Part shown: in pieces, positions 4,478 to 7,593 of the stretch
Layout: every line of letters begins with the position of its first letter
How positions within the stretch are numbered: position 1 is the stretch's first letter
NCBI GenBank assembly: GCA_943359345.1
Contig: CALRHE010000006.1
Location: 1-45,530, forward strand
Reading direction: 5' to 3'
Length of the DNA stretch: 45,530 bases
Origin: Candidatus Uhrbacteria bacterium
GTDB taxonomy: Bacteria > Patescibacteriota > Patescibacteriia > UBA9934
Made by a program: the position numbers and the translations under genes
Notes under the pieces: generated by a model
Told to the model about the DNA's origin: nothing
The model's database searches: none
The model's input: the letters and a program-made list of their open reading frames with translations, nothing else

Positions 4478-5560
4478 TCATATTTTTTTAAAAAGTTCCG
4501 CGAAACGTTCTGATTCAAGTCCAAGAATGGTGTTATTCGTGATTTTCTCTGCGAGACCATATCCATTGGCGTGAGATAAAACGCCGAGGTATGAATTCAA
4601 GGTTTGCCGAAGAGTATTTGCTGATATCAATTCCGCATTGTAATCACTGACCCTCATTGCCAATTTCTTGATCATCCGATTCTTCGTTTTCGTACGAAGC
4701 ACACTGCTGTTTCGACGTAAAACGTATCCAAGAAAGTCGATGCCTTGATGAGGCTGGCAAATAAAAACTTTCTTCGGATGCAGTTCGAGATGTAACCTCT
4801 TACCGAGAAAGGATTTAATCTTCGGCAACAACCCAACGAGTGCGTCCCTATCACCAGAGACGACTACGAAATCGTCCGTGTACCTGGCGTAATGTTCGAT
4901 TTTGCATTCATGCTTCATAAACTGATCAAAGACGTTCATGTAGATGTTGACGAAAAGCTGAGACGTGAGATTCCCGATGGGAACGCCCTTACGCCGCTCG
5001 AAGATACTCAACTGACCAGCAGGAAAACTCTCGACGATTGTTTCGAGAAGATGCATCACATCAGTATCAGCAATGCGTTCCAGTAATATCTCAAGCAAAA
5101 CACTATGGTCAATCGAATCAAAAAATCGTCGAACGTCACATTTCAACACAAAACATGGACGCGTGTAAGTGCGACTCATTTTTCTCACCATGTACGAGAG
5201 CGCATCGACACCCTTATGCGATCCTTTTCCCACCCGACAAGAATACGAGTCCGCAATAAAAGTCGGCTCAAAGATGGGATTCAGCACCTGAAAGACGGCG
5301 TGATGAACAACTCGATCGCGCACCGTTGCTTTGTGAATATGCCGTTGCTTTGGATCAGCGATAAAGAAGGCAAAATACGCCGCATGTCTATATGCTTTGC
5401 TCTTAAGATCCCGATGCAGTGCAAAGATGTTCTCCTCCAGCTTCCATTCAAAATTCGCCACGTCTTCGCGTTCTGTTTTGCCAACCTTAAAAGCATTCCA
5501 AGCCGCGAACAGCGACTCCGGACTGATCATTCGCTCGTAAATATTCCCGTATCTTTTCAT
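4478..5560 (-). CDS. Diversity-generating retroelement reverse transcriptase
   Basis: MKRYGNIYERM N-terminus typical of DGR RTs; VPIGNLTSQLFVNIY (DGR-type GxxxSQ motif 4); ARYTDDFVVV (YxDD). Confidence 0.95.
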   Translation of the reverse strand: MKRYGNIYERMISPESLFAAWNAFKVGKTEREDVANFEWKLEENIFALHRDLKSKAYRHAAYFAFFIADPKQRHIHKATVRDRVVHHAVFQVLNPIFEPTFIADSYSCRVGKGSHKGVDALSYMVRKMSRTYTRPCFVLKCDVRRFFDSIDHSVLLEILLERIADTDVMHLLETIVESFPAGQLSIFERRKGVPIGNLTSQLFVNIYMNVFDQFMKHECKIEHYARYTDDFVVVSGDRDALVGLLPKIKSFLGKRLHLELHPKKVFICQPHQGIDFLGYVLRRNSSVLRTKTKNRMIKKLAMRVSDYNAELISANTLRQTLNSYLGVLSHANGYGLAEKITNNTILGLESERFAELFKKI

Positions 5561-5564
5561 ACCT

Positions 5565-5933
5565 ATGGATGAATTCGACATCCCCATCTTCAAGAAAAAC
5601 TACGAATTGTACAAGTCGCTTAATGGCTTGAGGGCAACTGTACCCAAACAAGATCGGTATGTCGTTTGGCAACGGGTTGAGAATACGAATCTCGACCTCA
5701 CGGAACTTCTTTTACATGCCACGGCTCTGTATAAAACAGAAAAGCTTCCCGTGCTTGATAAGGCGAGCGTGAAGCTAAACCTGCTCCGTGTACTTATTCG
5801 GCTTTCCCATGACACCAAGGCTATCGACGGAAAGAAATACACGACTATTCAACAGCAGATCGACGAGATTGGAAGAATGCTTGGTGGATGGATTAAGTCC
5901 ATAAAAGCCGAGGGTACGCAAAACGCCTCGTGA
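5565..5933 (+). CDS. avd: DGR accessory variability determinant (Avd-like four-helix bundle)
   Basis: PIFKKNYELYKSLNGLRATVPKQDRYVVWQRVEN...KASVKLNLLRVLIRLSHDTKAIDGKKYTTIQQQIDEIGRMLGGWIKS resembles Avd/S23-type proteins. Confidence 0.9.
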   Translation: MDEFDIPIFKKNYELYKSLNGLRATVPKQDRYVVWQRVENTNLDLTELLLHATALYKTEKLPVLDKASVKLNLLRVLIRLSHDTKAIDGKKYTTIQQQIDEIGRMLGGWIKSIKAEGTQNAS

Positions 5934-5944
5934 TCGAGGCGTTT
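5921..5944. terminator. Perfect 10-bp hairpin over the avd stop codon, between avd and TR
   Basis: aaacgcctcg-tgat-cgaggcgttt. Confidence 0.7.
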
Positions 5945-5960
5945 GCTCTGAAGAGAGACT

Positions 5961-6084
5961 TCGAAGAGAACCCGGAGGAAGACCCGTAGTTGTCGTTCGG
6001 GTTGGCAACGTCGTTCGTGTCGAACTTGAGATCGCCGTCGTTGAAGTTGAAGATCGGCGCGTTCGGGAACTGACCATCGGCCTC
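5961..6084 (-). repeat. DGR template repeat (TR)
   Basis: 124 bp, same length as VR 6531-6654; differs only at TR adenines (19 of 28 A, 0 of 96 non-A). Confidence 0.97.
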
Positions 6085-6346
6085 AGGATTATTGCCTCCA
6101 CCCATCCGTGGCACCGAAGGTTGAAATGGGAGTACAACCCATCTTTTCCTCCTGAATTTTATTTGGGAGCAGCCCTTTGATGATCAGAGGACACCTCCAC
6201 AAGGCGGAAGCAAGCAGTATCTCCTCAATCTGGCTCGCTCTTGGAAACCGTAATTCCCAAGATTCTGGCCAACGATCTTCTTTTTGAGAAGAGAGTATGG
6301 CGACGATCATCCGTGAACGATCGTGCATGAGCCTTACTCGTAAACA

Positions 6347-6374
6347 AGTATAGCTAATATACGATTTATCGCAA
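6347..6374 (-). promoter_or_regulatory. Candidate promoter for the TR RNA
   Basis: Minus strand TTGCGA-16 nt-TATACT, just downstream of the target-gene terminator. Confidence 0.45.
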
Positions 6375-6414
6375 AAAAAGAAGCGGGGCTGTCCACGAAG
6401 ATGTGGACAGCCCC
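6373..6414 (-). terminator. Terminator of the DGR target gene
   Basis: Perfect 12-bp stem ggggctgtccac/gtggacagcccc; followed on the minus strand by a T-run. Confidence 0.88.
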
Positions 6415-6503
6415 TGAAGCGCGCGGCCAGTTTTACCCAGCCTGATGTAGCGACTCGCCTTCGGCGAGAAGGACTCAAGGAACAAGGGTTCGAAAGGCTC
6501 AAG

Positions 6504-6521
6504 TCCTCGAGGCTTCGAGGA
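6504..6521. other. Candidate DGR hairpin/cruciform next to VR
   Basis: tcctcga-ggct-tcgagga: perfect 7-bp stem with 4-nt loop, 9 bp beyond the VR end. Confidence 0.6.
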
Positions 6522-6525
6522 TCGA

Positions 6526-7410
6526 CTACTGCGAAGAGAACCCGGAGGAAGACCCGCAGAAGGCGTGCGGGTAGGCAACGCCGCTCGCGTCGAACTCGAG
6601 AACGCCGCCGTCGAAGTAGAAGAACGGCGCGCCCGGGAACTGACCACCGGCCTCGTACGAGTACTCATCACCCGCACAGTCGATCCACAGGTCGTCGTAG
6701 TTCTTCAGGCGGTCGGGATGAGTGAGAAGCATGATGCCGTTCTCGAACGCCCCGAAGCCGAACTGTCCGCCGTCCTGCATCACGACGCGGGCGCGACGGA
6801 CGGAACGACCCCGGTGAAGGAAGCCGAACTGTCCATCGACCACGAGGAGGTCGAACCCCTTCTGCTCTTCTGCGAGCTTCCGGAACGCGGCCTTCTTGGC
6901 GATGCCTTCCCGCAGGTGCTTCGCGCCCAGCTTGCCCTCGATGTAGTTGACGAACTTCTCGCCATACGCCACCCGGAGCTTGTCGAGCACGATCTGCACC
7001 GCCTCGCCGTAGGTCGCGGCGACCTTCTGCCAGGGCGGGATGACGAACTTGCCCTCGGCACCCTTCGGCACCGGGAGATTCGCCAGCGCCTCGTTGGCGT
7101 AGCCGATACCGGGGAAGATCTCACGGAGGCGATTCGCCTGCTCGGTGACCGAACGGGGCTGACGGTACCCCGAGAGGTACCCGTAGCTCGATTCGACCTC
7201 CTCGTCGACGAACTCCTGCGGGGTCGCGAGCTGCACGAGAACCAACCGGAGAAGCTCCTTGAGCTGCTCATGGCAGGGCCTGCCGTTCTTGACGATCCGC
7301 TGAGCACCGTCCTTGCTGAGGCCGAGCTCCTCGATGACATCGTCGAACGCAAGCTCGACGAATCCCTTGATCTGACGCTTCTGACCGGGTGTGATCTGTT
7401 CGATCATCAT
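6526..7410 (-). CDS. DGR variable (target) protein, diversified at its C-terminus
   Basis: C-terminus EAGGQFPGAPFFYFDGGVLEFDASGVAYPHAFCGSSSGFSSQ is encoded by VR; RBS-like aagaggtgg before ATGATG. Confidence 0.92.
   Translation of the reverse strand: MMIEQITPGQKRQIKGFVELAFDDVIEELGLSKDGAQRIVKNGRPCHEQLKELLRLVLVQLATPQEFVDEEVESSYGYLSGYRQPRSVTEQANRLREIFPGIGYANEALANLPVPKGAEGKFVIPPWQKVAATYGEAVQIVLDKLRVAYGEKFVNYIEGKLGAKHLREGIAKKAAFRKLAEEQKGFDLLVVDGQFGFLHRGRSVRRARVVMQDGGQFGFGAFENGIMLLTHPDRLKNYDDLWIDCAGDEYSYEAGGQFPGAPFFYFDGGVLEFDASGVAYPHAFCGSSSGFSSQ
6531..6654 (-). repeat. DGR variable repeat (VR)
   Basis: Aligns gap-free to TR 5961-6084 with adenine-only substitutions. Confidence 0.97.
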
Positions 7411-7564
7411 CCACCTCTTGATTGATGCTGAGTGCCCGAGATGCTCGGGACCGACAACTAGTCTCGCGCACGAGACAAGTATCCTAAAGAGCTTCAAAAG
7501 CTCTGCAAAATACTTGCCTCGTACGGTCAGGGAGCGTACCTAACTCTTGAAAAGAGTAGGACTA

Positions 7565-7593
7565 ACTGTAGCATAAAAACGCAGTTTTGTCAA
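7565..7593 (-). promoter_or_regulatory. Sigma70-like promoter of the DGR target gene
   Basis: Minus strand TTGACA-17 nt-TACAGT with TGC before the -10; implies a leader of about 150 nt. Confidence 0.7.

What the first reader, a model, noticed from the sequence alone, without database searches (positions are those of the whole stretch)
5961..6654. Diversity-generating retroelement with clean adenine-specific TR-to-VR mutagenesis
Seen directly: TR 5961-6084 and VR 6531-6654 (both read on the minus strand) align gap-free over 124 bp. There are 19 substitutions, every one at a TR adenine (10 A>G, 6 A>T, 3 A>C), with 9 adenines unchanged and 0 changes at the 96 non-adenine positions. Outside these limits the similarity stops. 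This is the defining signature of DGR mutagenic homing and implies the VR was rewritten with little later drift. In TR the reading frame is EADGQFPNAPIFNFNDGDLKFDTNDVANPNDNYGSSSGFSSK, rich in AAC and GAC codons; in VR it is EAGGQFPGAPFFYFDGGVLEFDASGVAYPHAFCGSSSGFSSQ. DGRs as a class are known, including in CPR bacteria, so the novelty lies in this locus and its layout.
Basis: partly seen in the sequence, partly recalled or inferred. Interest (0 to 1): 0.93.

Follow-up and report, generated by a model that had tools for sequence, protein, structure and literature searches.

The report
Bacterial protein-diversifying retroelement with separate template RNA
This tiny uncultured bacterium (Candidatus Uhrbacteria) carries a cassette that repeatedly rewrites the end of one protein gene by error-prone copying of an RNA template; cassettes of this kind are known, but here and across its phylum the template RNA has a conserved folded head, the helper gene runs backwards, and the target site carries a repeat array not seen in the textbook elements checked.

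Summary
It is a complete diversity-generating retroelement (DGR): DGR-type RT 4478-5560(-), Avd 5565-5933(+) above NCBIfam's cut-off, target gene 6526-7410(-). DGRs in CPR bacteria are known. (2) TR lies in its own RNA, with a three-way-junction domain directly 5' of TR (window 6086-6234), supported by massive covariation, restricted to DGR genomes (48/49), 507-601 nt from RT, absent from 15 non-CPR controls, not in Rfam except sub-threshold RT-16. A terminator follows TR, where the BPP-1-type 3' spacer should be. (3) A 7-8-nt CCTTGGN repeat array directly follows VR (52/60), never TR (0/60). (4) Two viral contigs with a relative of this DGR are identical over 7.5 kb except 20 changes in VR and 2 beside it. 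In passing, many related RT genes contain (GA)n or G(n) tracts, apparent phase-variation switches. Verdict: a real DGR, new variant of a known kind.

The parts
4478..5560 (-). DGR reverse transcriptase (360 aa; YTDD active site, IGNLTSQ = (I/V/L)GxxxSQ motif)
   Evidence: PF00078 2e-23, phrog_1423 1e-114; best PDB match 8ub7 = BPP-1 DGR RT, 2.6e-39
5565..5933 (+). Avd accessory protein (122 aa), head-to-head with RT; start codons 4 bp apart
   Evidence: NF033474 DivGenRetAVD 89.5 bits over cut-off 80; PF22296 bAvd; layout shared by all Patescibacteria loci with avd on the contig
5914..5944 (-). intrinsic terminator of the TR transcript (10-bp stem 5921-5944 plus T run), overlapping the end of avd
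   Evidence: terminator-like hairpin just after TR in 40/60 loci vs 5.4 expected
5961..6084 (-). template repeat (identity with VR starts at 5958)
6086..6234 (-). structured TR-leader RNA domain (three-way junction P1/P2/P3), ending 1 nt before TR
   Evidence: covariance model R1: 32.3 bits, E 6.8e-5; covariation
6235..6352 (-). 5' part of the TR transcript with -10-like TATACT (6347-6352); transcript start near 6340 inferred
   Evidence: promoter by consensus only
6373..6414 (-). terminator of the target gene (12-bp stem 6385-6414 plus T run), separating it from the TR transcript
   Evidence: sequence
6454..6468 (-). GC hairpin with GAA loop (CTCGCC-GAA-GGCGAG), counterpart of the DGR VR hairpin/cruciform, displaced by the array
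   Evidence: GNA/GRNA-loop hairpin in 9/60 VR flanks vs 0.1 expected, 0/60 TR flanks
6466..6520 (-). 7-8-nt quasi-repeat array (CCTTGGN-like, 7 copies) directly after VR and stop codon
6531..6654 (-). variable repeat (3' end of the target gene; identity runs to 6528)
6526..7410 (-). target (variable protein) gene, 294 aa, no known domain; GC3 0.85
   Evidence: relatives
7470..7522 (-). long near-perfect hairpin in the target gene 5' UTR (CCGAG-CAT-CTCGG hairpin follows at 7435-7449)
   Evidence: upstream folding z = -5.9
7565..7593 (-). predicted target-gene promoter: TTGACA (7588-7593), 17 bp, extended -10 TGC-TACAGT
   Evidence: sequence; aligned with relatives; by consensus only

Best explanation
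A complete, recently active cellular DGR of the Patescibacteria (CPR) type. A short stand-alone RNA is made from its own promoter: a structured 5' leader, then TR, then a terminator. The RT with Avd copies TR into cDNA with errors opposite adenines, and the cDNA replaces VR at the 3' end of the target gene, changing up to 28 adenine positions (shown: anatomy and the adenine-only footprint; copying and homing inferred from the known DGR mechanism). Inferred, about 60%: RT-Avd recognises the template through the 5' three-way-junction leader, the job done in BPP-1 by RNA 3' of TR, and the repeat array plus hairpin after VR marks VR as recipient. The target protein is probably a hypervariable ligand-binding protein; its ligand is unknown.
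For: Adenine-only TR/VR footprint here and 344/350 in 20 pairs. RT and Avd family matches. Same layout VR gene > TR > antisense avd <> RT across the loci checked. Leader: 15-sequence MAFFT alignment 96.5% paired with 21 of 25 pairs doubly changed; 57 sequences 94.4% paired, 436 double-change cells vs 121 shuffled, slid controls 34-50%; found again in 20 of 35 loci not used for the model; 48 of 49 leader-bearing genomes carry a DGR RT vs 86/287 baseline, Fisher 1e-29, spacing to RT 507-601 nt in 22 of 22. Terminator after TR 40/60 vs 5.4. Array after VR 52/60 vs TR 0/60. Population variation in L125/L126: 20 of 22 differences over 7,516 bp lie in VR.
Against: No transcript, cDNA or read-level data for this locus. 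Only one VR allele of the window was seen; population evidence comes from a relative about 38% identical in the target protein. The window's own leader score is moderate (32 bits). In the L125/L126 contrast 5 of 20 VR changes are not at TR adenines. The AlphaFold model of the target failed (pLDDT 33.5), so the C-type lectin fold usual for DGR targets is not shown. Binding of RT-Avd to the leader and use of the array are inferred.
Confidence: 0.86

Rival explanations
1. An ordinary BPP-1-like DGR in which TR and RT are co-transcribed, the RNA 3' of TR (antisense to avd) acts as the spacer, and the leader is merely an untranslated region.
For: Order VR-TR-RT on one strand is as in BPP-1; an RNA could read through the terminator into RT.
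Against: Terminator-like hairpin directly after TR in 40/60 loci; avd antisense lies between TR and RT; the covarying RNA is 5' of TR. In the nine phage controls TR is on the RT strand just upstream of RT, with about 110-160 nt from TR to the annotated RT start in L110-L112.
Confidence: 0.12
2. A decayed DGR: VR was rewritten once in the past and the element is no longer active.
For: Single VR in the genome; related RT genes are often out of frame.
Against: RT, Avd and target are open; 0/96 non-adenine changes between TR and VR, so little time has passed; leader, terminators and promoter-like elements are intact.
Confidence: 0.07
3. The leader is an independent regulatory RNA (such as a riboswitch or sRNA) that happens to sit beside DGRs.
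For: Rfam's RT-16, which matches weakly at the same place in L107 and G166, is filed only as an sRNA gene without stated function in the output.
Against: It ends 0-4 nt before TR in the loci examined, has a near-fixed distance to RT, and occurs almost only in genomes with a DGR RT (48/49).
Confidence: 0.1
4. TR and VR are a chance or gene-conversion duplicate with unrelated mutation.
For: None beyond the existence of a duplicate.
Against: All 19 changes at adenines (P 6e-16), neighbouring RT and Avd, identical pattern in relatives.
Confidence: 0.005

Closest known systems
Bordetella phage BPP-1 DGR (mtd-avd-TR-brt; checked on its relative vB_BbrP_003, L110)
   Same: RT, Avd, TR/VR with adenine-only changes, VR at the 3' end of the target gene, TR upstream of RT on the same strand.
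   Different: BPP-1 type: all genes co-directional, TR abutting the gene upstream of it, about 160 nt between TR and RT, hairpin a few bp after VR, no R1 leader (PMC3240598). Here: avd antisense and head-to-head with RT, structured RNA 5' of TR, terminator 3' of TR, repeat array then hairpin after VR.
CPR/Patescibacteria DGR clade 2 (Roux et al. 2021, PMC8144416)
   Same: Cellular, in Patescibacteria, target protein without recognisable domain; the window almost certainly belongs here.
   Different: A text search of that paper found no mention of avd, gene orientation or non-coding RNA. Membership in the RT tree clade was not computed.
Rfam RF03019 RT-16 RNA
   Same: Full-length sub-threshold matches exactly at the leader position in L107 (30.4 bits) and 509 nt upstream of an RT in G166 (30.2 bits).
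   Different: No match in the window or in nearly all leaders; its paper was not held, so its stated context is unverified.
Nanoarchaeal DUSEL4 DGRs (PMC4372165)
   Same: VR hairpins with GRA triloops; the window has a GAA-loop hairpin after VR.
   Different: There the hairpin lies inside the target gene; here it lies after a repeat array beyond the stop codon.

Membership tests
Diversity-generating retroelement (DGR) | TR/VR pair with substitutions confined to TR adenines | tested here: met
   19/19; 344/350 in 20 pairs
Diversity-generating retroelement (DGR) | RT of the DGR group with (I/V/L)GxxxSQ motif | tested here: met
   IGNLTSQ; phrog_1423 1e-114; PDB 8ub7 best
Diversity-generating retroelement (DGR) | VR at the 3' end of an open target gene | tested here: met
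   VR 6531-6654 is the C-terminal end of CDS 6526-7410
Diversity-generating retroelement (DGR) | Avd-type accessory protein (common, not universal) | tested here: met
   NF033474 89.5 > 80 bits
Diversity-generating retroelement (DGR) | Target domain of C-type lectin (or Ig) fold | tested here: inconclusive
   AlphaFold model pLDDT 33.5; no Pfam or PDB match
Diversity-generating retroelement (DGR) | Active mutagenic retrohoming (variants in a population) | tested here: inconclusive
   Shown for relative L125/L126 (20 of 22 differences in VR, 15 at TR adenines); not testable for the window itself
BPP-1-type DGR architecture | avd co-directional with RT | tested here: not met
   avd 5565-5933(+) vs RT (-); divergent in all Patescibacteria loci with avd
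BPP-1-type DGR architecture | spacer RNA of about 140 nt between TR and RT | tested here: not met
   terminator about 16 nt after TR, then antisense avd
BPP-1-type DGR architecture | GRNA-loop hairpin a few bp after VR | tested here: inconclusive
   GAA-loop 6-bp hairpin 62 nt after VR, behind the repeat array
Rfam RT-16 RNA (RF03019) | match at or above the gathering score | tested here: not met
   no match in the window or G000; sub-threshold matches in two relatives

The most novel reading that the evidence does not exclude
Patescibacteria DGRs form a mechanistically distinct branch: the template RNA is recognised (and perhaps primed) through a structured 5' leader instead of a 3' spacer, recipient sites are marked by a heptad/octad repeat array absent from TR, and in many lineages the mutator itself is switched on and off by repeat-tract phase variation in the RT gene.
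Probability: 0.5. Interest if true: 0.88.

Novelty: new variant of a known kind. Interest (0 to 1): 0.7.

Why it matters
How DGRs choose their template RNA and tell the recipient VR from the donor TR is known in detail only for the BPP-1 system. CPR bacteria are strongly enriched in DGRs but mostly uncultured. A covarying RNA domain tied to TR, a repeat array tied to VR, and a mirrored avd/RT layout give concrete, mutable parts for reconstitution in E. coli, a genome-wide probe for finding template RNAs (model R1), and a marker for finding recipient sites. If the RT tracts really switch, a bacterium would be phase-varying its own mutator.

Tried and rejected
Second TR or VR in the own genome: none. 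VR-protein structure: AlphaFold failed, so no fold search was run; hhalign against the putative BPP-1-type target: no relation. Rfam at gathering score: nothing on the DGR. RT protein scan of IMG/VR: no relatives; the VR-protein profile found three. A strict genome pattern for the repeat array was too rigid: 4 hits, none shown to be at a VR. RT-16 as the family of the leader: rejected as membership, kept as probable distant relative. The target-gene 5' UTR hairpin is strong in the window's group but not general: median upstream z -1.7 over 21 genes. For remote VRs a strict motif count was uninformative (0.33 vs 0.38) although the 7/8-nt periodicity was clear (z 8.3). The paper behind RT-16 and the main CPR DGR papers of 2017-2018 were not held or not found, so prior description of the divergent avd cannot be excluded.

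Full report
OBSERVATION. Recomputed from the sequence, TR 5961-6084 and VR 6531-6654 (minus strand) align without gaps with 19 mismatches, all at TR adenines: 10 A>G, 6 A>T, 3 A>C; 9 adenines unchanged; 0 of 96 other positions changed. The identity runs three bases further (5958/6528). The probability that 19 randomly placed changes all fall on the 28 adenines is about 6e-16. TR and VR each occur once in the 732-kb, 24-contig assembly. The nearest named relative found is Candidatus Uhrbacteria UBA12070; the window is therefore taken to be an Uhrbacteria (CPR/Patescibacteria) genome.

CASSETTE. RT 4478-5560(-): RVT_1, PHROG 1423 (1e-114), best solved relative the BPP-1 DGR RT 8ub7; it carries IGNLTSQ and YTDD. 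Avd 5565-5933(+): NCBIfam DivGenRetAVD 89.5 bits over a cut-off of 80. Its start codon is 4 bp from that of RT, on the other strand. The target gene 6526-7410(-) has no known domain. The cassette sits between a cytidylate-kinase-like gene and rplS (L19). In four congeners the kinase-L19 neighbourhood is kept, and in the three read in colinear order (G007, G008, G009) the gap is about 30-590 nt, without the DGR; one of these gaps holds a different small GC-rich ORF. So the DGR is a recent gain here or a loss elsewhere.

SAME DESIGN ACROSS THE PHYLUM. Family, order and phylum searches gave about 75 RT loci. Wherever an Avd was on the contig (about 70 loci, a few of them repeats of one locus) it was divergent from and next to RT. 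TR was found on the RT strand, ending close to the avd stop, in 60 loci. In 20 aligned pairs of the family, the window's included, 344 of 350 substitutions are at TR adenines. Most of these pairs were found with a scan that favours adenine changes, so the pooled figure is partly by construction; the window's own pair was given beforehand. In fifteen non-CPR elements (nine phage, six plasmid), avd, where annotated, is co-directional with RT.

TEMPLATE RNA. Directly 5' of TR lies a conserved RNA domain: a 12-bp helix P1 whose 3' strand ends at TR, enclosing hairpins P2 and P3. In a plain MAFFT alignment of 15 leaders 96.5% of cells pair, 21 of 25 pairs have double changes, and sliding the partners by 1-3 columns drops pairing to 32-50%. 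A covariance model (R1) finds it in 57 of 73 loci, 0-4 nt before TR where TR is known, including the window at 6086-6234 (E 6.8e-5). On those 57 sequences there are 436 double-change cells against 121 in shuffles (this alignment was fitted to the structure and leans towards it). It was found again in 20 of 35 loci fetched later and in three viral contigs. In a fresh scan of 287 phylum genomes, 49 have it, 48 of them among the 86 with a DGR RT (Fisher 1e-29), 507-601 nt upstream of RT in all 22 measured. It is absent from the fifteen controls apart from one non-significant hit downstream of RT. A terminator-like hairpin follows TR in 40 of 60 loci against 5.4 in shuffles; in the window it overlaps the end of avd. 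In the nine phage elements TR also lies on the RT strand just upstream of RT; in the three whose annotated RT start leaves a clear gap (L110-L112) it is about 110-160 nt. Rfam has no family for the leader at gathering score, but RT-16 (RF03019) gives full-length sub-threshold matches exactly at the leader position in L107 and 509 nt upstream of RT in G166; RT-16 is probably a distant form of the same element.

RECIPIENT SITE. After VR and the stop codon comes an array of 7-8-nt quasi-repeats, consensus CCTTGGN: lag-7/8 self-match 0.401 against 0.277 shuffled (z 25); TR 3' flanks show none (z -1.8). With a learned weight matrix (trained on the same flanks) 52 of 60 VR flanks and 0 of 60 TR flanks exceed the 99th percentile of shuffles. 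Remote VR genes in G019 and the viral contigs have the periodicity too (z 8.3). Phage controls show a weak form (z 4.8). Behind the array the window has a GAA-loop GC hairpin (6454-6468); strict GNA/GRNA-loop hairpins occur in 9 of 60 VR flanks against 0.1 expected and in no TR flank. In BPP-1 a hairpin a few bp after VR is required for efficient homing (PMC3240598). I infer that array plus hairpin mark VR as recipient.

ACTIVITY. IMG/VR contigs L125 and L126, from two metagenomes, carry a relative of this DGR with the same avd/RT/TR layout next to a portal-like gene. Over 7,516 aligned bases they differ at 22 positions, 20 in VR and 2 within 40 bp of it; TR and RT are identical; 15 of the 20 are at TR adenines. 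For the window itself no second allele was available.

MECHANISM. Shown: anatomy, adenine-only footprint, conserved RNA structure, site marks, population variation in a relative. Inferred from the known DGR mechanism: error-prone reverse transcription of TR by RT-Avd and replacement of VR. Inferred here (about 60%): recognition of the template through the 5' leader; the recipient mark. The fold and ligand of the target protein are unknown; the model failed.

KNOWN OR NEW. DGRs in CPR are known and form a clade (PMC8144416); separate transcription of TR was proposed in 2012 (PMC3521204). I found no mention of the divergent avd, the leader or the array in the papers I could search, but the principal CPR-DGR papers were not held, so priority is not established. 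Filed as a new variant of a known kind.

Noticed in passing
L131-L143, L152, L162 (broken); L070, L085, L091, L107, L109 (open): DGR RT genes of many other Patescibacteria contain a simple-sequence tract, (GA)n, (CT)n or G9-G11, at one protein position just before the GIPIGNLTSQ motif; 16 of 25 tract-bearing full-length RTs are out of frame, others in frame. This looks like phase variation of the DGR mutator. The broken set was picked because the RT was split, so frequencies are biased. The window RT has no such tract; the top hits of one literature search did not mention DGRs.
   Followed up: partly
L157, L160: (AC)10 and (AC)14 tracts in two more distant broken RT genes at about residue 123-130.
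   Followed up: no
window 6526-7410: The target gene is far richer in GC (63%, GC3 0.85, A3 0.03) than RT, avd or neighbours (45-51%); several related target genes share this.
   Followed up: partly
window 7435-7522: The target-gene 5' UTR holds a long near-perfect hairpin and a small CCGAG..CTCGG hairpin before the ribosome-binding site, kept with compensatory changes in the closest relatives.
   Followed up: partly
L124, L125, L126: Viral contigs with terminase-like, portal-like or recombinase genes (judged by eye) carry the same DGR type, leader and target-protein family, a possible vehicle for transfer. [quoted passage not shown]
   Followed up: partly
G019 contigs C15, C16, C19, C20, C23, C28: Ca. 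Uhrbacteria UBA12070 has several dispersed target genes of the same family; three contigs end within such a gene, as if assembly broke at VR.
   Followed up: partly
G355:C7:106393-106506: The one leader-bearing genome without a DGR RT match at E 1e-30.
   Followed up: no
L175 (G009), CMK-L19 interval: The site that holds the DGR in the window carries a different small GC-rich ORF in a congener, suggesting a variable locus.
   Followed up: partly
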